A DNA stretch of 50,819 nucleotides from an uncultured Bacteroidales bacterium (GTDB lineage: Bacteria; Bacteroidota; Bacteroidia; Bacteroidales; Bacteroidaceae). Shown in pieces: positions 5,035 through 47,627 of this stretch. The notes under the pieces were generated by a model. It was not told the DNA's origin and did not search any database. It worked only from the letters and a program-made list of their open reading frames with translations. The DNA lies in the NCBI GenBank assembly GCA_902802265.1, contig CADCLN010000018.1:1-50819 (forward strand). Reading direction: 5' to 3'. The position numbers and the translations under genes are program-made. The first letter of the stretch is position 1; every line of letters begins with the position of its first letter.

Positions 5035-5173
5035 ACCACCTCCACAGAAAACCATTACCCCAACAGCCTCTGTTGAGGCAAGAAAAGATTTTCCCGACAC
5101 ATACAAACCTTAGTCACAGGAAAAAGCAGAGGACACTTCCGTGCGGAAATGCCCTCCTTGGGTGTGAGCCCAA

Positions 5174-5257
5174 ATTGTATCCCGAACCTTCTGTGGACTG
5201 GCAGAAGCAAAAGAGCAGTAGCATCTCATCCCTTGAGCAGAGGTTTTCTGTCTGTGT
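5174..5257 (+). repeat. Conserved head of repeat element A
   Basis: From ATTGTATCCCGAACCTTCT onward this segment is about 90% identical by eye to the reverse complement of 23218-23301, including GAGCAGAGGTTTTCTGTC. In both places it runs straight into the 22-bp array, in the same relative orientation. It is therefore one repeated element and not two independent arrays. It encodes no plausible protein. Confidence 0.8.
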
Positions 5258-5455
5258 GGCGCAGTTCTCTCCCTGCTGTGGCATAACTATGCTGCTCGTC
5301 TGGCACTGCATTGCTACTATGGTGGCATAACTGTGCTACTCGTCTGGCACTGCATTGCTACTGCTGTGGCATAACTGTGCTGCTCGTCTGGCACTGCATT
5401 GCTACTGCGGTGGCATAACTATGCTGCTCGTCTGGCACTGCATGGCTCACCCGTA
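5258..5455 (+). repeat. 22-bp modular repeat array A (8 full units plus a degenerate one)
   Basis: Eight contiguous units of exactly 22 bp begin at 5258, 5280, 5302, 5324, 5346, 5368, 5390 and 5412, followed by a decayed copy at 5434. Apart from the divergent first unit, each opens with GGCA, has a variable six-base word (CTGCAT or TAACTG/TAACTA), a constant TGCTAC or TGCTGC core, and a variable tail. The two words alternate, giving an apparent 44-bp period. There are no spacers, so this is not CRISPR. It ends about 25 bp before the GH43 stop codon. Confidence 0.9.
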
Positions 5456-12076: not shown

Positions 12077-12140
12077 ATTTAACAGCAGTTAAGTTTTGAA
12101 AATTCAGGAGCCGTGTTTTGAATCTTCAACAGCTAAGTTT
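12077..12140 (+). repeat. Interspersed structured element, copy 1
   Basis: A TTAAC-AGCA-GTTAA hairpin is followed by a second imperfect hairpin around AGCCGTGT and by GAATCTTCAAC. The same order of blocks occurs in reverse complement at 34070-34130. This copy lies beyond the ald terminator and has no gene immediately downstream on its strand. Confidence 0.7.
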
Positions 12141-12186
12141 TAACTCTAATATGGATAAAAGATGTGAAAAAACAGAAGAGGGCGTT

Positions 12187-15151: not shown

Positions 15152-15218
15152 ATAGGGCTACCTTAAATGAAGAATGAAGAATGAAGAATGAAGAATGAAG
15201 GATAGGGCTACCTTAAAT
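15152..15218. repeat. 7-bp tandem repeat flanked by a 17-bp direct repeat
   Basis: Five tandem copies of TGAAGAA (the last TGAAGGA) occupy 15168-15202. They are flanked by two identical 17-bp copies of ATAGGGCTACCTTAAAT (15152-15168 and 15202-15218), suggesting a slippage or small duplication event between the MATE gene and the V-ATPase terminator. TGAAGAATGAAGA also occurs once near 34180. Confidence 0.85.
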
Positions 15219-23063: not shown

Positions 23064-23217
23064 AAACGAGCGAGAAAACTATGCCGTCGCGACAGCAATG
23101 CAGTGCCAGACGAGTAGCACAGTTATGCCACGGCAGTAGCACAGTTATGCCACGGCAGTAGCAATGCAGTGCCAGACGAGCAGCATAGTTATGCCACGGC
23201 AGGAAGAGAACTGCGAC
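23064..23217 (-). repeat. 22-bp modular repeat array B (7 units)
   Basis: On the minus strand, seven contiguous 22-bp units occupy 23196-23217, 23174-23195, 23152-23173, 23130-23151, 23108-23129, 23086-23107 and a decayed 23064-23085. The unit at 23174-23195 is identical to those at 5280-5301 and 5412-5433. The same words (CTGCAT; TAACTG/TAACTA) and cores (TGCTAC/TGCTGC) as in array A are used, but their order differs: two TAACTG units are adjacent here. Confidence 0.9.
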
Positions 23218-23301
23218 ACACAGACAGAAAACCTCTGCTCAAGGGAAGAGATGCTACTGCTCCATTGCGCCTGCCAGTCCCCAGAAGGTTCGGGATACAA
23301 T
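23218..23301 (-). repeat. Conserved head of repeat element B
   Basis: Reverse-complement counterpart of 5174-5257, about 90% identical by eye, joined to array B exactly as the first copy is joined to array A. The two elements are thus inverted relative to each other, 18 kb apart. Confidence 0.8.
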
Positions 23302-23307
23302 TTTTGC

Positions 23308-34169: not shown

Positions 34170-34243
34170 AGAAAAATAAATGAAGAATGAAGATTATTTT
34201 TACAAAAATGGTAAATGGTAAATGGTAAATGGCAAATAATTCT

Positions 34244-39896: not shown

Positions 39897-42887
39897 ATGA
39901 TGAAACATTCTTTACTGATTCTTTCGTTGGTCTGCGCCACAGGGATGCAGGCTCAACAGTTGGCGTTCCCTGGAGCTGAAGGTTTTGGCGCTTATGCTTC
40001 GGGTGGACGTGGTGGAAAAGTGGTACACGTGACAAACCTGAAGGCTTCGGGTGCAGGCTCTTTGGCAGACGCCGTCAGCCAGTCGGGACGCATCGTGGTC
40101 TTCGATGTAGGCGGTGTCATTGACATTACGGGCACAAACCTCACCATTGCCAGCAACATCACCATTGCCGGACAGACGGCTCCAGGCGAAGGCATCACCG
40201 TCTATGGTGGACGTATCATCGCCTCGAAAAGCAAGAACATCATCATCCGCTACCTGCGTATGCGTGGCGGAAAAAGTGTGAACAGCAGCAAGTGCACGCT
40301 GACGCTGGACAACTGCGAGAACCTCATCATGGACCACTGCAGTGTGTCGTGGGGACCGTGGGACAACGTGCACATCAAGGATGCCAACAACATCACATGG
40401 CAGAACTGCATCATCTCGGAGGGCATCGAGCCGCAGCGGTTCGGGTCCATTACCGACGGCACACGCAACTGGACGGTGCACCATTGCTTGTGGGCCGACA
40501 ACAAGAGCCGTAACCCCAAGATGAAGTGCTACATCCAGTATTATAATAATGTGGTCTATAACTACGCCATGGGTGTCGTCGGCGGACACTCCGCAGCCGA
40601 CAACTATCAGGACCTGATGAACAACTACTTCATTGCCGGCCCTGACGGTTCTGCCAAGTATTTCGACCAGTGGACCGAGACCGACCACATGTACAGCAAG
40701 GGCAACTACTTCGACGGGAATTGCGACGGAAAGCTCAACGGCACACTCATCACAGACCACAACGGTGCCACCGTCATGAGCAGTCCTTCCCTGAAATGCT
40801 CTGCACCCATGCAGTTGGAAACGGCTGCCGAGGCATACCAGACCGTTGTGGACCATGTGGGAGCATCGCGTGTGCGCGACATCCACGACAAACGCATCAT
40901 CGAGCAACTGACCTCACTGGGCAAGAAGGGCAGTTTCATTGCCAACGAAGACGAACTGGGCGGCATCGGTAAGGTGGGTGGAGGCACACCTCCAACTGAC
41001 AGCGACAAGGACGGCATGCCCGACGAATGGGAAACGGCCAACAATCTGAACCCCAAGAAAGATGACTCGCAGGGGACGGACCTCGGTGGCGGCTACACCA
41101 ACATTGAGCATTACATCAACAGCTTGGCACAGAAGGGCAGCTACCTGATGTATCCCGTGAACCCTGCTGCCCGTCTCATCGACGACACGACCGTGGAGCT
41201 GACATGGACAAACACAGACCTGGAACCAACCGACGTCACTTGCATCGAAATGTCGGAAGACGGAAAGACATTTACGGAAGTGAAGCGCGAACCGGCCACA
41301 GCATCGAAGACGACCATTTCTGGACTTGAAGCCGGAAAAATCTACTACTTCCGCATGAAGAACATCTCCGACGACACGGAGTCGCTCTACTCCACCACCG
41401 TCTCCATCAACGACGAATATATGCGCCCTGGCGGTGGAACTCCCGCCAACACCAACCCCTTCACTCCCGCCGAAAAGAAACTCTACCGCATCATTTCGTA
41501 TGCTACCATTCCTTTCAATTCGGGGACAACCATCAACGGCACGCCCAAATACCTTACGTTCAACAGCAACGGCAGTCTGGGCACTACGGAAGAGTATCAG
41601 TGGGACAATCCAGCGCTCTTGTGGGAAATCACACCGACAGAGGGCGGAGTCTATATCCAGAACTTCAGCACAAAGGCATACATCAGCCCCACCAACCTCA
41701 GCATCGCCGGCAGTGAGCGCATCGGTTCGGCAACGGAACCTACCCTGCTCACCATCAACTACACGGGCAATCAGCAGCCAGCCCAGTCGGGTGTGAATAC
41801 GCCTGTGTCGATGTACCGCATCAACTGCCCCTCGAACAAGGACCAGCAAATTCGTGCACGCGGATTTGCCGACGACTGGATTTGGGGCTCCGGCACATTC
41901 GACCGTGCCGACATGATATTCACCTTCACCGAAATAGACCTCTCGCTGGTGCGCCTCTATCTCAAGACGTTCCAAGCAACGCTTGAAAATACCGTCAAAC
42001 TGGCCAACTCTGCTCAGGTTGATGTCACGCTGGGCTACCCATCCAGTGCCCTGGAGACGCTGAACAACGTCATCGCAGCAGCAAAGGCTTTTGCCGAGGA
42101 AATCGAGGCAGGCGAACACGACCAGGCAGAAGTAGATTCCGTGGTCAACCGTCTGAACCAAGCCCAAGCGGACTTCGCAGCCACCCAGATAATGACCTTC
42201 ACAGGATTCTCCACCGACGTGGCCTACAACATCTTCAGCTACGGCACCACGTCCAATGCACGAACCACCACAGCCACGATGGACACCCAGCGACGCTACC
42301 TCTACAGCATCAAGGCTGCCGACGGCGTGAGCGACTCGCTTGTCTATCGGGTGGGACTGTCCGAAGACCAAATCAATGCCGGCCAGCAAGACCCCATCGC
42401 CAGCCAACCAGCCGCCCTGTGGACCTTCGAAGCAGGACAGGACGGCAATGTCTATGTGCGCAACCTGGCCTGTGGCGCCTATCTGCAAATTGAAAACATG
42501 CTCTCTGCACAGCCCATCACCATCTATCCCTATTATGCCAAGGACGACAACAACAAGATGGCATACTATCTGCACAGTGACGAAAAGAGAAAACGCTGCT
42601 TCAATGTAGGCACACCCGATGCCGACGGCAAAGGCGGACCACTGGCATTCTTCAGCGGATATGCAGACCGCACCCGTCTGCGCTGGGTCATCGAAGAAAC
42701 CGACATCCGCTCCACCCCTGTGTCCGTCCCGTCCGTATCCGCTCAAAACGCTCCCGCCTCTGTTCGGTATTTCAATCTGCAAGGCATCGAACTGGGGCGC
42801 AAGCCCACCTGCGGAATGTACATCGAGCGCATCACAGCCCCCGACGGAACTATCAAGACGCAGAAGCGGATTTCTCCAGTACGGTAG
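39897..42887 (+). CDS. Secreted multidomain pectate lyase
   Basis: A 996-residue secreted polysaccharide lyase acting on pectin backbones. A Sec signal (LLILSLVCATGMQAQ) precedes a parallel beta-helix domain (~24-330) of pectate-lyase type: AFPGAEGFGAYASGGRGG, GRIVVFDVGGVIDI, NITIAGQTAPGEGITVYGG, NIIIRYLRMRGG and MDHCSVSWGPWDNVHIKD. A Ca-binding type-3-repeat-like stretch (DSDKDGMPDEWETANNLNP) follows near 365, then a fibronectin III domain (~415-505), two beta-trefoil-like modules and a helical linker. The C-terminus (VRYFNLQGIELGRKP to the final KRISPVR) resembles a type IX sorting tail, so it is probably surface-exposed. Its stop codon lies inside the first unit of repeat array C. Two adjacent ATGs make the start uncertain by one codon. 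Confidence 0.9.
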   Translation: MMKHSLLILSLVCATGMQAQQLAFPGAEGFGAYASGGRGGKVVHVTNLKASGAGSLADAVSQSGRIVVFDVGGVIDITGTNLTIASNITIAGQTAPGEGITVYGGRIIASKSKNIIIRYLRMRGGKSVNSSKCTLTLDNCENLIMDHCSVSWGPWDNVHIKDANNITWQNCIISEGIEPQRFGSITDGTRNWTVHHCLWADNKSRNPKMKCYIQYYNNVVYNYAMGVVGGHSAADNYQDLMNNYFIAGPDGSAKYFDQWTETDHMYSKGNYFDGNCDGKLNGTLITDHNGATVMSSPSLKCSAPMQLETAAEAYQTVVDHVGASRVRDIHDKRIIEQLTSLGKKGSFIANEDELGGIGKVGGGTPPTDSDKDGMPDEWETANNLNPKKDDSQGTDLGGGYTNIEHYINSLAQKGSYLMYPVNPAARLIDDTTVELTWTNTDLEPTDVTCIEMSEDGKTFTEVKREPATASKTTISGLEAGKIYYFRMKNISDDTESLYSTTVSINDEYMRPGGGTPANTNPFTPAEKKLYRIISYATIPFNSGTTINGTPKYLTFNSNGSLGTTEEYQWDNPALLWEITPTEGGVYIQNFSTKAYISPTNLSIAGSERIGSATEPTLLTINYTGNQQPAQSGVNTPVSMYRINCPSNKDQQIRARGFADDWIWGSGTFDRADMIFTFTEIDLSLVRLYLKTFQATLENTVKLANSAQVDVTLGYPSSALETLNNVIAAAKAFAEEIEAGEHDQAEVDSVVNRLNQAQADFAATQIMTFTGFSTDVAYNIFSYGTTSNARTTTATMDTQRRYLYSIKAADGVSDSLVYRVGLSEDQINAGQQDPIASQPAALWTFEAGQDGNVYVRNLACGAYLQIENMLSAQPITIYPYYAKDDNNKMAYYLHSDEKRKRCFNVGTPDADGKGGPLAFFSGYADRTRLRWVIEETDIRSTPVSVPSVSAQNAPASVRYFNLQGIELGRKPTCGMYIERITAPDGTIKTQKRISPVR

Positions 42888-43028
42888 CAAAGTTCTCCCA
42901 CTTCAGTAGCAAAGTTCTCCCACTGCCGGCGCATAGTTCTGCCGTTGCAGTGGGAGAACTTTGCTACGGCGGTGGCACTGCATTGCTACCCTGACGGCAC
43001 TGCATTGCCACCGCAGCGGGAGAACTTT
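42878..43028. repeat. 22-bp modular repeat array C with internal inversion
   Basis: Three 22-bp units on the minus strand (42878-42899, 42900-42921, 42922-42943), an 8-base centre, then three units on the plus strand (42952-42973, 42974-42995, 42996-43017) and a partial one (from 43018). The plus-strand consensus is the same as in arrays A and B (GGSA, six-base word, TGCTAC core), but the commonest word here is GAACTT; CTGCAT appears twice. The head-to-head order lets the array fold as a long hairpin (GGGAGAACTTTGCTAC pairs with its complement). The first unit includes the last codons and stop of the pectate lyase gene. Confidence 0.9.
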
Positions 43029-43200
43029 CAAAATTCCTACTTGATTTTTTCAAACAAAGTTACACCAAATAGCGTTTTCTACGGAAAATCAGTAAAATAA
43101 GTCTAAAAAAGTTACATGAAAGTTGCACTAAAGTTGCACCAAAGTTACACCAAATCGTCACTCCCAAAGAAGATTTTGTGCAATCTTTCATTTTTTCTAA

Positions 43201-43389: not shown

Positions 43390-44541
43390 TTATTTTGTAG
43401 AAGAACTAAGGGCAAGGCGCAGACCAATGTAGTAGTAACGATTCGTCGGCGTACTGTAATTGCGATAGGTTACACGACAGTTCCTGGCATTGTTGACCCA
43501 GCCGCCGCCACGTAGCACGCGGCGAGAGCCCGTTGAAGGACCTGTAGGATCGGACTGGGCAGAAGAAGAATAGTTTCCATACCAGTCGCTGCACCATTCC
43601 CTCACATTGCCAGTCATGTCATAGAGCCCCAGTTCGTTAGGCTGCTTGGTACCCACCTCATGGGTGTTGCCACCGTTCTCTGTGTACCATGCCACATCGT
43701 CTATCGTGTTGCTGCCGCTGTACTTGTAGCCCTGGCTCTTTGTGCCGCCACGGGCTGCAAACTCCCATTCGGCCTCTGTGGGCAGGCGGAAGGTCTTGCC
43801 TGTGGCCTGGTTCAGCATCGTGATGAATTCCTGGCAGTCGTCCCAGCTTACATCCTCCACCGGCAGGTTGTCGCCCTGCCAGTAGGACGGATTGCTGCCC
43901 ATGACAGCTTGCCAAAGAGCTTGTGTCACTTCGGTCTCGCCTATCTGGTAGTCGCTCAGGGTCACGTTGTGAACGGGAGCTTCATCGTCGTAAGCATCGG
44001 CATCGTAGTTGGAGTCAGAGCTGCTTGTCCACTGTGCGCCCATCAGGAACGTGCCGCCTGTGACGGACACCATCTTGAACGACACACCGTTCACCGTGTA
44101 GGTGGGCTGTACCGGTTTGGCTGAAGTATAGACTGCAACCTCATTGCCTGTACCAGCAGCCACCACCAAATAGTCAGAGGAGATTTCCTCAATCTTGAGG
44201 CGAGAAACGGGTACACCACTGGCATCATAGAAAAGCACAGTGCCCTGGAAGGGGCGGAACTTGTAGGTACCACCGTCAATATAGTCGGTCGTGCCGTCGG
44301 CATTGAATGTGATGCTTTCGGTCATTGACTTGTACCATGTACCCACCAGACTGCCGTTCTGCACGACGTATGGGTCAATCAGTTCGACTGCACCCGTAAG
44401 GTAGCCGTCAATGAGCAGGGTGACATCTTCCACATCGAGACCGTCATTGTGATTCAGGTCTCCGTTAATGACTTGTGCCTGGACCGCTGTAGTCAGCACG
44501 GTGGCTGCAAGAAGCAGCAAGAGACGTTTTAATTGTTTCAT
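43390..44541 (-). CDS. Secreted dockerin-like / FGE-sulfatase-fold protein
   Basis: A 383-residue exported protein. Signal peptide 1-22 (ends TTAVQAQ); a dockerin-like calcium loop ~24-50 (GDLNHNDGLDVEDVTLLIDGYL); a small lipocalin-like module ~66-140 (GTWYKSMTESITFNADGTTDY); then a formylglycine-generating-enzyme (C-type-lectin) fold from ~155 (VTGGTFLMGAQW, TQALWQAVMGSNPSYW, RLPTEAEWEFAARGG, GNVREWCSDWYGN). The catalytic Cys pair of true sulfatase-modifying enzymes is not kept (Asn at the first, Cys at the second position of GGGWVNNARNC), so it is probably a binding protein. The C-terminal RNCRVTYRNYSTPTNRYYYIGLR is rich in Asn/Tyr/Ser, as in retroelement-diversified proteins. It starts 68 bases after its paralogue stops. 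Confidence 0.85.
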   Translation of the reverse strand: MKQLKRLLLLLAATVLTTAVQAQVINGDLNHNDGLDVEDVTLLIDGYLTGAVELIDPYVVQNGSLVGTWYKSMTESITFNADGTTDYIDGGTYKFRPFQGTVLFYDASGVPVSRLKIEEISSDYLVVAAGTGNEVAVYTSAKPVQPTYTVNGVSFKMVSVTGGTFLMGAQWTSSSDSNYDADAYDDEAPVHNVTLSDYQIGETEVTQALWQAVMGSNPSYWQGDNLPVEDVSWDDCQEFITMLNQATGKTFRLPTEAEWEFAARGGTKSQGYKYSGSNTIDDVAWYTENGGNTHEVGTKQPNELGLYDMTGNVREWCSDWYGNYSSSAQSDPTGPSTGSRRVLRGGGWVNNARNCRVTYRNYSTPTNRYYYIGLRLALSSSTK

Positions 44542-44609
44542 AGTCTTGTTGAATTTTTAAAAGGTTTAGTTTGCGATTTTATTAAAAATTTGGCTGAGTT
44601 GATGAAATA

Positions 44610-46124
44610 CTACGGGCACACGGCGCGGACACTATACCCGATTTCACGGGCACTGTAAGTCATGCCGATATTGCCCGACGTGATGAACAAGTAGTAAGCG
44701 TAGTTCGGGCTTGAAGTGTTGAGCGAACTCGACCAATAGTAACCGCATTTCCCCTCATTTTGGGGCGAACCTTCTTGGCTGTATCCGCTCGCAGGCAGGA
44801 AGATAGAGTTGCCATTCGGGCCTGTCACTTTATAGCCGTTCATGCCGCCCTGGGCTGTCCATTCCCAAGTGCACATTTTCCTCAGTTCATTCAGTTCGTC
44901 ATAGGTGGGCATACGCCATGTGCCGCCCCAATTAATATGGGCCGCGTCATTTTCCAGGTCAAGGACTGTCTTGTTATCTACCGTGCCGTAAGAGCTGTTG
45001 GTGCAGTACTTGGTCAGGCTGGAGGAACTGCCATTCCTGCACCACATATACGTTGCCCAGGTGTAGATGCTCTTGGTGGAAGTCTCTCCCCAGGCATAGG
45101 AAATGCCGGAACCGGAACTTGCAACCGTGTTCAGCGTAGCCCATCGCACAGAGAGACCAAGGTCAATCCAAGCGTGACCATATTCCGTGCCGGAAACTGG
45201 TCTGACAGTCACGTCACAGAAGGCTCTTACGCCACTGCCGTCAGCGGCACTGCAGATGATGGTGGTTGTGCCCACGTTTCTGGCTGTAATCGTACCGGTT
45301 TCCCTGATGGTGGCCACTGTCTTATCGCTGGAATACCATGTCACCTCCTTGTTGGTCGCATCGGAAGGACTCACCGTGGCAGTCAATTTATGCGTGCTGC
45401 CTACAGCGAGCTTAAGAGATGTTGATGAAAGCGTTATCTCTTCAACAAGTGTCGAACTGATAACCTTCACGGTACAGGTAGCTGTGCTTCCTGCCACTTC
45501 TGCCGTGATGACAGCTGTGCCGTCGGCTATAGCAGTGATATAGCCGCTTTCCACGGTAACCACTCTCTCGTCGCTGCTGCTCCACGTCACTGTGCCTGCA
45601 TCCGCGGGAACAACCGTAGCACTCAGATGGACCAAATCACCAGATTTTAATTGGAGCGAAGTCTGCGAAAGGGTGATGCTTGCAGGCTGTGTGGCAGAAT
45701 AGCGATCAGGTGTGCTGCTGCCTGTGGGCAGAAGAACCAGATAGTCGGATGTTGCCTTCAGTACCCGAAGGGCATAAACGGGCACACCCGAAGCATTGTA
45801 GAACAAAATGTAGCCCTGCGTGGCAAGGAACTCATAGGTGTAGCCAGCAGCATAGTCGGTCGTGCCGTCAGCATTGAACGTAATGCTTTCGGTCGTTGAC
45901 TTGTACCACGTGCCCGTTACAAAACTGTTGTCCACCGCAAAGGGTGCGCCGCCTGTCTGAATCTGTTCAGACTCACCAGTCAGGTAGCCATCAATCAGCA
46001 AGGTGACATCTTCCACATCGAGACCTTGATTGTGATTCAGGTCTCCGTTAATGACTTGTGCCTGGACCGCAGTGGTCAGCACAACAGCTGCAAGAAGCAG
46101 CGAGATACGTTTTAATAGTTTCAT
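44610..46124 (-). CDS. Secreted dockerin-like / Big2 / Fib_succ_major-type protein
   Basis: A 504-residue exported paralogue of the next gene. The first ~145 residues match it closely (signal peptide, GDLNHNQGLDVEDVTLLIDGYL, GTWYKSTTESITFNADGTTDY). Then come two bacterial Ig-like Big2 domains (~150-235 and ~238-320: LSATVVPADAGTVTWSSSDERVVTV and LTATVSPSDATNKEVTWYSSDKTVATI), and a C-terminal Fibrobacter-major-type domain (HAWIDLGLSVRWATLN, WGGTWRMPTYDELNELR, GYYWSSSLNTSS) ending in GYSVRAVCP. This C-terminal domain is shared with the gene at 46.6 kb, not with the adjacent paralogue. A good promoter precedes it. Confidence 0.85.
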   Translation of the reverse strand: MKLLKRISLLLAAVVLTTAVQAQVINGDLNHNQGLDVEDVTLLIDGYLTGESEQIQTGGAPFAVDNSFVTGTWYKSTTESITFNADGTTDYAAGYTYEFLATQGYILFYNASGVPVYALRVLKATSDYLVLLPTGSSTPDRYSATQPASITLSQTSLQLKSGDLVHLSATVVPADAGTVTWSSSDERVVTVESGYITAIADGTAVITAEVAGSTATCTVKVISSTLVEEITLSSTSLKLAVGSTHKLTATVSPSDATNKEVTWYSSDKTVATIRETGTITARNVGTTTIICSAADGSGVRAFCDVTVRPVSGTEYGHAWIDLGLSVRWATLNTVASSGSGISYAWGETSTKSIYTWATYMWCRNGSSSSLTKYCTNSSYGTVDNKTVLDLENDAAHINWGGTWRMPTYDELNELRKMCTWEWTAQGGMNGYKVTGPNGNSIFLPASGYSQEGSPQNEGKCGYYWSSSLNTSSPNYAYYLFITSGNIGMTYSAREIGYSVRAVCP

Positions 46125-46170
46125 AGTCTTGTTGAATTTTTAAAAGGTTTTATTTATAAATTTATTAAAT

Positions 46171-46233
46171 ATTCGGCTGCAAATTTACACCTTTCTTTCT
46201 AATCCACAAAAGAATTTGGCATAAATGTGGCGC
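46171..46233 (-). repeat. Promoter cassette, copy 1
   Basis: 63 bp (starting ATTCGGCTGCAAATTTACA on the plus strand) that match 47949-48011 at 61 positions. It contains a full promoter in the same place in both copies. Confidence 0.85.
46180..46210 (-). promoter_or_regulatory. Promoter of the Big2 surface-protein gene
   Basis: TTTG (46207-46210) and, after 19 bases, TAAATTTG (46180-46187) on the minus strand; predicted start near 46173 and a leader of ~50 bases to the ATG at 46124. The short gap to the downstream paralogue suggests both are on one transcript. Confidence 0.75.
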
Positions 46234-46305
46234 GTTTTGAATTGACAAGTGCTGTGTTTTGATGCAAAAAACAATGTGTACAGCCTCTTTCGGTGACATT
46301 CTGTC

Positions 46306-46328
46306 CCCTACTAAAAACTGTACACAGA
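46306..46328 (-). repeat. Shared 3' element, copy 2
   Basis: Identical to 43250-43272 (CTACTAAAAACTGTACACAG core). See that entry. Confidence 0.8.
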
Positions 46329-46427
46329 AGAAAGTTTTTCTGTAAAACAGTTGTATCATTACGACAGAAAAAGGCTAAAAAGATTCCTGCCTTTACAAAA
46401 GATCTGTATAAAACAGGATAAAAAAAC

Positions 46428-46509
46428 AAGCCTTTCGCCTGTGCGGAGGTGCTGCAACGGCTCCTTTTTTGAGAGCCGCCGCCTGCACCTCCGCACAGGC
46501 GAAAGGCTT
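46428..46509 (-). terminator. Very long terminator hairpin of the 46.6-kb gene
   Basis: A perfect 25-bp inverted repeat (arms 46428-46452 and 46485-46509, AAGCCTTTCGCCTG type) encloses a second 6-bp stem (CGGCTC/GAGCCG). On the minus strand it is followed at once by TTGTTTTTTTATCC. It lies 54 bases beyond the stop of the lipoprotein gene. The stem is much longer than needed for termination. Confidence 0.85.
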
Positions 46510-46562
46510 TTGGGTCGCGCGTCCTTGCCCGTGGAGGGAAAGGATGCACTAACTTCTCGAAG

Positions 46563-47627
46563 CTACGGGCAGACAGCGCGCACAGACTGACCGTAGCTGC
46601 GGTAGTAGTCGTCCCAGTACGTACCGTCCGAATTGAAGCCCAGCTCGTAGGCGTAGGTGTCGCCGCCCGGGCAGAACGAACTCGACCAGTAGTCGCCGCC
46701 GTAGCCCGCGCGGTTGAGGCGGTCGTCCCAGCGGATGCCCGCGGCAGGCAGGAAGATGGAGTTGCCATTCGGACCTGTCACCTTCTGGCCGTTCACGCCA
46801 CTCTGCGTTGTCCACTCCCAGTTGCACTTTTCCTTGAGTTCTTTTATTTCATCAACGGTTGGCATACGCCATGTGCCGCCCCAGTTGGCATGGGCTGCAT
46901 CGTCTTTCAAGTCAAGCGTGGTCTTGTTGTCAACGGTGCCCCACTTTGACGTGGTGCAGTATTTGGTCAGGGTATAGTATGAGCCATTGCACCATTTATA
47001 GGTTAACCAATCGTAGGTACTCTTTGTGGTGGTCTCGCCCCATGCGTAATAGTTGCCGTAGTCTTCGGGAGAAGATGCGCCAATGTTCATAGTAGCCCAT
47101 TTCACAGAAAGCCCCAAATCAACCCATTGGTGACCATTTTGCTTCCCTGTTGAAGATGTATTTGTTCCTCCACCGTTGCCACTTTCACCATTCCCATTAT
47201 TATGGTTATTATTGTTATTTGTTTGTTTATAATATGTATAGCTGTCTCCGTCATTGTCCATGATAACAAAATACGAATCCGTTAAAGACACAACAATAAA
47301 TACTCTTGTCCAACCGCTAGACTTTAAAATACTTAACAAACCAGTCTGTTCGTTATAAGACCATTGACCACTTATTGATTCTGATGAGCCGTCTGATTGC
47401 TTCCCTATAAATGTCCCATCTGCATTAAAAGTATAAGTGTCAACACTTATTCCATAATTTCCATTACATTTCCATGTACCAACAAATGGATTTGAGGAAT
47501 TAGAATCGGAATCTCCAGAACACGCAATACAAAGTAAAGCCATCACTACAATAGCTAAAGAATTTAATACATTTTTTTCATAATGAGTAAATAAAATAAG
47601 AAAAGGCGTGTAACCATTAGCACTCAT
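46563..47627 (-). CDS. Lipoprotein with lipocalin-like and Fib_succ_major-type domains
   Basis: A ~340-354-residue surface lipoprotein. The lipobox is LLCIACS; a lipocalin-like module (FVGTWKCNGNYGISVDTYTFNADGTF) follows, then an Asn/Gly linker and a C-terminal domain shared with the 44.6-kb gene (GHQWVDLGLSVKWATMN, WGGTWRMPTVDEIKELK, GDYWSSSFCPGGD, GQSVRAVCP). The start is uncertain. The open frame starts at ATG 47627 with 17 odd residues before the signal; the normal-looking ATG at 47581 runs into a stop after MKKMY, because an A7 tract (47572-47578) is one base short of the frame MKKNVLNSLAIVVMALLC. This is a real slippage site, a pseudogene-like lesion or a sequencing error. The 3' part (VR-like, 46563-46750) is strikingly GC-rich against an AT-rich 5' half. 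Confidence 0.75.
   Translation of the reverse strand: MSANGYTPFLILFTHYEKNVLNSLAIVVMALLCIACSGDSDSNSSNPFVGTWKCNGNYGISVDTYTFNADGTFIGKQSDGSSESISGQWSYNEQTGLLSILKSSGWTRVFIVVSLTDSYFVIMDNDGDSYTYYKQTNNNNNHNNGNGESGNGGGTNTSSTGKQNGHQWVDLGLSVKWATMNIGASSPEDYGNYYAWGETTTKSTYDWLTYKWCNGSYYTLTKYCTTSKWGTVDNKTTLDLKDDAAHANWGGTWRMPTVDEIKELKEKCNWEWTTQSGVNGQKVTGPNGNSIFLPAAGIRWDDRLNRAGYGGDYWSSSFCPGGDTYAYELGFNSDGTYWDDYYRSYGQSVRAVCP
47572..47578 (-). repeat. A7 homopolymer at the lipoprotein start
   Basis: Seven A residues directly after a good ATG. Eight would put that ATG in frame with the lipoprotein signal peptide. This is a possible on/off slippage site or a base-count error. Confidence 0.6.

What the first reader, a model, noticed from the sequence alone, without database searches (positions are those of the whole stretch)
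23064..23217. 22-bp repeat units use a small alphabet of interchangeable words
Across arrays A, B and C more than 20 units, each exactly 22 bp and without spacers, keep a GGSA opening and a TGCTAC/TGCTGC core, while positions 5-10 take one of a few words (CTGCAT, TAACTG, TAACTA, GAACTT, GAACTA) and the tail varies as well. Word order differs between arrays A and B although the heads match, so units seem to be shuffled or recombined, not only duplicated. 22 bp is about two helical turns, which would place bound proteins on one face.
Basis: partly seen in the sequence, partly recalled or inferred. Interest (0 to 1): 0.75.

Follow-up and report, generated by a model that had tools for sequence, protein, structure and literature searches.

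The report
Modular 22-bp intergenic palindrome arrays
Between many genes of this gut-type bacterium sit short DNA arrays built from 22-letter bricks that keep a strict spacing but swap and flip a few eight-letter words, a mosaic repeat of a generally known kind with an unusual grammar that recurs, with other words, in other Bacteroidales.

Summary
The window holds three spacer-less 22-bp arrays, and at least 62 arrays were read in the genome. Each unit is a variable, imperfectly palindromic 14-bp GC-rich linker plus an 8-bp A...T word from a small lexicon. Words occur in both orientations in register. In 33 of 38 arrays with both orientations of the AGAACTTT-type word, the two face each other. 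Arrays sit mostly at gene 3' ends.

The inferred shuffling is only partly right. A and B are two dispersed copies of one element that differ by a single 22-bp unit, as slippage would give. Across a sister species, however, matching gene boundaries hold arrays with the same lattice and different word order and orientation.

Best reading: bricks of a MITE/BIME-like interspersed mosaic element, copied as cassettes and kept at gene 3' ends. Function there is not shown. Hairpin potential is high, but U-run terminators and arm-to-arm covariation were not found. Membership in REP/RAYT or BrickBuilt fails or is untested. The same 22-bp grammar with other words occurs in other Bacteroidales families, the most unusual point. 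Verdict: new variant of a known kind.

The parts
5169..5278 (+). head (leader) of element A, ~105 bp shared with element B
   Evidence: 92% identity to 23199-23303 minus strand; only these two matches at E <= 0.001 in the own genome
5275..5429 (+). array A: 7 words on a 22-bp lattice, alternating ATAACTRT and ACTGCATT, all in one orientation, between convergent genes
23067..23199 (-). array B (the given finding): 6 words on the lattice, copy of element A in opposite orientation lacking one 22-bp unit, in the divergent gap between a V-type ATPase subunit E-like gene and pyrB
   Evidence: genes:
23199..23303 (-). head (leader) of element B
42881..43013 (.). array C: words B- B- B- B+ A+ A+ (B = AGAACTTT type, A = ACTGCATT type), inverted halves in register, starting at the end of a + strand ORF (pectate-lyase-like)
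43026..43154 (.). flank family beside array C with 11-bp AAAGTTACACC repeats, similar flanks next to arrays L073, L089, L105, L091

Best explanation
The three arrays are brick arrays of non-coding interspersed mosaic elements (MITE/BIME-like). A brick is a 14-bp imperfectly palindromic GC-rich linker plus an 8-bp A...T word. SHOWN: similar cassettes (array, often with a shared leader) lie at unrelated gene boundaries; two copies differ by one whole 22-bp unit; words stand in either orientation in register; at some gene boundaries shared with a sister species arrays are present in both with different word order, at one followed boundary the array is absent from the sister; arrays favour gene 3' ends. 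INFERRED: cassettes are copied by a non-autonomous transposition or ectopic copying process; units are gained and lost by replication slippage; the palindromic linkers let template switching or hairpin-mediated copying flip a word without breaking the register; arrays are retained where they do least harm or some good, downstream of genes, perhaps as structured transcript ends or supercoiling/topoisomerase sites as proposed for REPs.
For: Lattice: 292 of 300 spacings are multiples of 22; 68 three-linker segments (62 own, 6 from the sister MAG) align without a gap over 58 columns with invariant word edges A15, T22, A37, T44. Imperfect palindromes: 325 linkers have on average 3.75 of 7 mirror positions Watson-Crick paired, against 2.07 (largest 2.24) in 200 shuffles. 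Dispersed cassettes: 43 alignments (40 distinct locus pairs) of at least 84% over at least 110 bp that include at least 80 bp of array, e.g. L071/L079 95% over 144 bp, L069/L075 93% over 219 bp with leader (shared bricks alone can cause some of these); leader families. Unit gain/loss: A versus B, one 22-bp gap. In-register flips: B- 134, B+ 130, A+ 59, A- 59, other 5. Dyad: B- before B+ in 173 word pairs, the reverse in 9; 0 of 2000 within-array shuffles reach 173. Turnover at fixed sites: L082/L122, L098/L134, L107/L117, L108/L121, each tied by at least one flanking gene, and the pyrB site tied by both. 3' ends: 22 convergent, 25 tandem, 6 divergent of 53 placed arrays; 32 of 53 within 100 bp of a stop; sister MAG 7 convergent, 13 tandem, 0 divergent of 20 placed (23 loci examined at the best lattice position, 3 unplaced).
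Against: No terminal inverted repeat, target-site duplication or clean empty site was shown. At the L075 site nine other genomes show no lattice, but the left neighbour also differs, so insertion is not proved. No mobilising enzyme is tied to the units. The order B- then B+ is not explained by hairpin need alone, since the opposite order pairs as well. Gene calls are from a simple codon-score script, and the control for gene context is only 29 gene pairs of the window (Fisher p 0.013).
Confidence: 0.6

Rival explanations
1. Transcribed hairpin element: the array acts in RNA at transcript 3' ends, as terminator, processing block or stabiliser, and its dyad halves are kept for pairing.
For: Arrays fold far better than dinucleotide shuffles (mean z -7.0, 53 of 62 below -3; 30 shuffles each); location at gene 3' ends; B- before B+ dyads; REPs of other bacteria show the same placement (PMC3733652, passages).
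Against: Stability does not exceed that of the same units in random order and orientation (mean z +0.3). Arm-to-arm matching of variants is not significant (436 against 421 +- 10, 200 permutations). No enrichment of T runs at array ends (14 of 122 ends, against 19 to 30 at three offsets; the first 22 nt include GC-rich linker, which lowers the count). Word orientation is not tied to gene strand in 25 tandem arrays. No Rfam family reaches its gathering score in the window; the 28 weaker hits in 14 loci searched are all microRNA families.
Confidence: 0.25
2. Array of protein-binding sites on one DNA face (nucleoid or topoisomerase sites, or a dedicated regulator), the words being alternative recognition sequences.
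For: 22 bp is about two helical turns, with an 11-bp sub-period in array autocorrelation (0.38 at lag 11, 0.63 at 22, 0.67 at 44); word edges almost invariant (A 99%, T 99%); a few words dominate (top three 76%).
Against: No protein identified; main words differ between distant genomes with the same lattice; only 6 of 53 placed arrays lie in divergent gaps.
Confidence: 0.2
3. Classical REPs/BIMEs mobilised by a REP-associated tyrosine transposase (RAYT).
For: More than 100 intergenic palindromic units in clusters with inverted copies; a Y1 transposase gene lies about 330 bp from array L101.
Against: That gene is bounded by GGTAGCCAGCCAT palindromes, not by the 22-bp units. No Y1_Tnp match at E 0.001 in the sister MAG with 32 word matches (its completeness is not given), while strong Y1_Tnp matches occur in genus members with at most one word match (G014, G024, G033). 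Orientation is nested (- - + +) and not alternating.
Confidence: 0.12
4. Unit shuffling by a site-specific recombinase.
For: In-register flips; different word order at matching sites.
Against: A versus B is a one-unit difference. No recombinase was found tied to the arrays (only Y1_Tnp was searched); words 22 bp apart are very tight for a synaptic complex (inference).
Confidence: 0.06

Closest known systems
BrickBuilt MITE of Porphyromonas gingivalis (PMC4596501)
   Same: Spacer-less 23-nt tandem repeats, intergenic, many dispersed loci, leader and tail flanks, stem-loop prediction, length differences between strains by repeat number (abstract, sections 5, 7 part 1 and 8, and passages seen)
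   Different: BrickBuilt has 19 loci in strain ATCC 33277, was found by its authors only in P. gingivalis and P. gulae, and has IS5-like terminal inverted repeats in some copies; here 62 or more arrays, several unrelated leader families, words flipped in register, no terminal repeats found. The 23-nt sequence was not in the text I saw, so no sequence comparison was made.
REP / BIME elements and RAYTs (PMC2817692, PMC3733652; passages seen)
   Same: High-copy intergenic palindromes, clustered in both orientations, predominantly between convergent or co-directional genes, genome-specific sequence
   Different: No GTAG/CGTC-tagged 20-40 bp stem-loop as unit, strict 22-bp register without inter-REP spacers, nested and not alternating orientation, no cognate RAYT flanked by the units found
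Ordinary minisatellites / VNTRs (recalled)
   Same: Whole-unit gain and loss
   Different: As far as I recall, minisatellites do not flip single units in register or share one lexicon among scores of loci

Membership tests
BrickBuilt-type MITE | Spacer-less tandem repeat of 22-23 bp at many intergenic loci | tested here: met
BrickBuilt-type MITE | One conserved leader and tail with terminal inverted repeats | tested here: not met
   Several unrelated leader families; no common terminal repeat seen in the alpha, beta, gamma alignments, by inspection only
BrickBuilt-type MITE | Target-site duplication / empty site | tested here: inconclusive
   One locus followed to 9 genomes; neighbour genes differ, no precise junction
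BrickBuilt-type MITE | Sequence homology of the repeat | not tested
   The 23-nt sequence was not in the text I saw (a figure logo in PMC4596501); no P. gingivalis genome was searched by name
REP/BIME | >100 intergenic palindromic copies, avoiding divergent gaps | tested here: met
REP/BIME | GTAG or CGTC tag at one foot of a 20-40 bp stem-loop | tested here: not met
   profile of 325 units, shows no fixed tag; GTAGC occurs in part of the linkers only
REP/BIME | Cognate RAYT gene flanked by the repeat | tested here: not met
   Strong Y1_Tnp of the own genome carries other palindromes; none detected in the sister MAG. The weaker own match on C31 was not inspected.
REP/BIME | Alternating orientation of regularly spaced REPs | tested here: not met
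   B- then B+ nested order, 33 of 38 mixed arrays
Intrinsic terminator | Hairpin followed by U run | tested here: not met
   14 of 122 array ends have TTTT in the first 22 nt, not above offsets; a few arrays (L058, L061, L071, L090, L094) do end in GCTTTT

The most novel reading that the evidence does not exclude
A class of Bacteroidales repeats defined by grammar and not by sequence: a strict 22-bp lattice of GC-rich imperfectly palindromic linkers that carry 8-bp A...T words, where distant genomes use their own lexicon (AGAACTTT and ACTGCATT here; AAAGTTTT/AAAGCTTT and ACAGTTAT/ATAGCCGT in two genomes of another family; AAGCCTTT, AGCATCCT and AACACCGT in others). The lattice outlives its words, so something (a protein that reads the 22-bp phase, or a copying mechanism that uses the palindromic linkers as joints) maintains phase and word edges while words are replaced genome-wide.
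Probability: 0.25. Interest if true: 0.75.

Novelty: new variant of a known kind. Interest (0 to 1): 0.5.

Why it matters
Bacterial interspersed repeats are mostly known as fixed palindromes (REPs) or fixed minisatellites. Here the register and the word edges are conserved while words, orientation and linker sequence turn over between sister species. That makes the units natural markers for how short palindromic repeats are copied and flipped, and makes the question 'what keeps the 22-bp phase' directly testable in cultured Bacteroidales.

Tried and rejected
Tried without a positive result: Rfam (none at gathering score in the window; 28 weaker hits in 14 loci, all microRNA families). Terminator and promoter scans at the three arrays: region of A 2 terminator-like sites, both upstream of the array, 0.5 expected; region of B 2, one inside the array's left edge, 0.7 expected; region of C none, and one promoter-like site. 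T-run test (negative). Mirror covariation test (not significant). RAYT link (rejected as above). Gene-strand dependence of word orientation (none seen). Papers: ten searches listed no paper that describes a 22-bp lattice of this kind in Bacteroidales; only open-licence PMC papers are held, so this is weak evidence of absence.

Results against the reading: unit-scrambled controls fold as well as the real arrays; 5 of 36 same-genus genomes have one AACT-word match and 31 none, so the lexicon is nearly private to this species and its sister; at the L075 site the sister lacks the array; Y1_Tnp was given 24 genomes, 22 of them of the 36 same-genus ones, and the pyrB search 32 (31 of the 36).

Counts left out or biased: L066 (a lone word) was dropped before array counts; matches beyond the printed lists (roughly 35 of 135 and 11 of 111) were not fetched; 9 of 62 arrays lacked a callable neighbour. 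The near-palindromic ACTGCATT word can be counted once on each strand, so 111 overstates sites. The unit profile was symmetrised, and the strands were chosen at random, so linker palindromy rests alone. Two-unit scan of GTDB: 24 stretches; 4 in the sister MAG; 5 others in 4 MAGs show clear further units on inspection (L036, L041, L047, L049, L051); of the other 15, three (L039, L044, L050) were read by eye and showed none, the rest were only scanned by script.

Full report
WHAT IS THERE. The window lies on contig C18 of a 2.88-Mb, 63-contig genome, about 86% complete. GGSAN6TGCTRC matches 16 times in the window against 0.51 expected. Fifteen matches form three arrays: A at about 5275-5429, B at 23067-23199 (the given finding, minus strand) and C at 42881-43013. 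On the lattice they hold 7, 6 and 6 words. A and C lie between convergent genes. B lies in a divergent gap between a gene resembling V-type ATPase subunit E (below that model's cut-off) and pyrB.

ANATOMY. Genome-wide the motif has 187 matches against 25 for the reversed control. The two word-specific motifs GGSANAACTDTGCYRC and GSCANTGCANTGCYRC have 135 and 111 against 0 (the second counts some near-palindromic sites twice). I fetched 60 stretches around listed matches; 59 hold an array, and with the window there are 62 arrays of at least three words. Of 300 spacings 292 are multiples of 22. The unit is an 8-bp word, A first and T last in 99%, plus a 14-bp linker of the type GCYACYGCRGTRGC. 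The single linkers are imperfect palindromes: 3.75 of 7 mirror positions pair on average, against 2.07 in shuffles. Of 387 words 23 are distinct and the top three make 76%; of 325 linker cores 99 are distinct and the top three make 26%. The two main words are ACTGCATT and AGAACTTT with variants. Both occur in both orientations in the same register: 134 and 130 for the AGAACTTT type, 59 and 59 for the ACTGCATT type. A weaker 11-bp sub-period exists (identity 0.38 at lag 11, 0.63 at 22, 0.67 at 44).

ORDER OF WORDS. Where both orientations of the AGAACTTT-type word occur (38 arrays), AAAGTTCT stands left of AGAACTTT strictly in 33; pair counts are 173 to 9, and no within-array shuffle of 2000 reaches 173. 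Many arrays are therefore inverted repeats built from 22-bp bricks; 24 of 62 have the word in one orientation only, array A among them. The opposite order would pair just as well, so pairing alone does not explain the polarity; this remains unexplained.

DOES A VERSUS B SHOW SHUFFLING? No. With their shared head (92%, found only twice in the genome) they align over 253 positions, 222 identical, with one gap of exactly 22 bp. They are two copies of one element in opposite genomic orientation.

DISPERSAL. Arrays often carry a shared flank. Alpha, beta and gamma families join arrays at different loci, and array-containing matches recur at 84-95% identity in both orientations (43 alignments, 40 locus pairs). 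The flanks form mosaics: in gamma a ~70-bp and a ~200-bp module occur together or singly beside arrays.

PERSISTENCE AND TURNOVER. The GTDB contig scan turned up the MAG RGIG3754 (Bacteroidaceae, roe-deer abomasum by its record), handled as G061. It has 32 matches to the AACT-word motif, while 36 same-genus genomes have 0 or 1 each. Its flanking genes are about 74-89% identical to ours at shared sites. At matching boundaries both species hold arrays on the same lattice with different words, orders and orientations (L082/L122, L098/L134, L107/L117, L108/L121; the pyrB site). The first four are tied by at least one flanking gene, the pyrB site by both. They were found through array matches in the sister, so they do not tell how often sites are shared, except the pyrB site, which was searched with its genes and array together. 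At the L075 site RGIG3754 and eight other genus members show no lattice in the stretch held around the conserved gene (best scores -50 to -66).

LOCATION. Of 53 arrays with two callable neighbours, 22 are convergent, 25 tandem and 6 divergent; window gene pairs are 4, 20 and 5 (Fisher p 0.013 for convergent). In tandem gaps arrays lie nearer the 3' end in 17 of 25 (median 86 against 251 bp, Wilcoxon p 0.067). RGIG3754: 7 convergent, 13 tandem, 0 divergent of 20 placed out of 23 loci. Published REPs show the same bias (PMC3733652, passages).

STRUCTURE. Predicted RNA folds are much more stable than dinucleotide shuffles (mean z -7.0; 53 of 62 below -3) but no more stable than the same bricks in random order and orientation (mean z +0.3). 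Mirror-position covariation is not significant. T runs are not enriched at ends. The sequence evidence therefore supports hairpin capacity, not a demonstrated RNA function.

SPREAD OF THE GRAMMAR. A 58-position model of 68 segments, run on 393 genomes of the order, hit three: the own genome and two of another family, G145 and G245 (strict filters and at most 14 candidates scored per genome, so a lower bound). Both hold 22-bp lattices with GGC...GCC linkers and A...T words, but other words: AAAGTTTT/AAAGCTTT/AAAGGTTT in G245, ACAGTTAT/ATAGCCGT/ACAACCGT in G145 (ACAGTTAT is also a minor word here). In G245 one word motif has 18 matches (12 and 6 by strand, one site counted on both), control 0, spaced by 22, 44 or 66 within clusters; it has none in the own genome. 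The GTDB contig scan also brought arrays with other words in a Bacteroides MAG (AAGCCTTT), two Prevotellaceae MAGs and a Dysgonamonadaceae MAG. Those loci were selected by a pattern with the same linker edges and spacing, so only the further units beyond the pattern are independent evidence.

MECHANISM, COMMITTED. Non-coding, MITE/BIME-like mosaic elements spread as leader-plus-array cassettes (dispersed copies shown, enzyme unknown). Arrays change by whole-unit slippage (one-unit difference shown for A/B) and by in-register flipping, most simply by template switching at the palindromic linkers (inferred). They accumulate downstream of genes (shown), where they are tolerated or serve as structured ends or topological sites (inferred). 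Confidence 0.6 in the class, about 0.25 in any RNA role.

RELATION TO KNOWN KINDS. It works like BrickBuilt (PMC4596501; abstract, sections 5, 7 part 1 and 8, and passages seen) and like BIMEs (PMC2817692, passages), but does not meet the defining features of either that I could test: one leader/tail pair with terminal inverted repeats (not found), tagged stem-loop unit, cognate RAYT, alternating orientation (not met). Hence 'new variant of a known kind'. Ten paper searches (listed in Tried and rejected) listed no description of this lattice.

Spacing counts now come (window included), linker palindromy and not from the symmetrised profile, and the cassette count is given as alignments and locus pairs.

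Noticed in passing
L062, L077, L082, L084, L097, L106, L107, L113, L115 flanks (beta family): A ~330-bp flank element has blocks of 11-bp words (GGAACC, GTCAC or GGCAC type) whose words change together between separate blocks so that pairing is kept by eye: covariation or templated homogenisation inside one element.
   Followed up: partly
43108-43154: Next to array C, 11-bp repeats AAAGTTACACC; the same flank family lies beside at least four other arrays.
   Followed up: partly
12086-12141: A TTAACAGCAGTTAAGTTTTGAA... stretch; similar sequence lies beside the Y1 transposase in L147 and left of array L065.
   Followed up: no
43390-47627: Genes with FGE-sulfatase, Big_2 and Lcl_C domain matches (Lcl_C below cut-off); similar sequence lies near several arrays in other loci, so gene duplication may have carried some arrays.
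   Followed up: partly
L147:1380-2060: IS200-like TnpA gene with GGTAGCCAGCCAT inverted palindromes at both ends; a related gene with like ends in G024 (L148).
   Followed up: partly
15166-15200 and 34179-34193: Same 7-bp unit AATGAAG tandemly repeated at two places; AATGAAG repeats also lie left of array L116.
   Followed up: no
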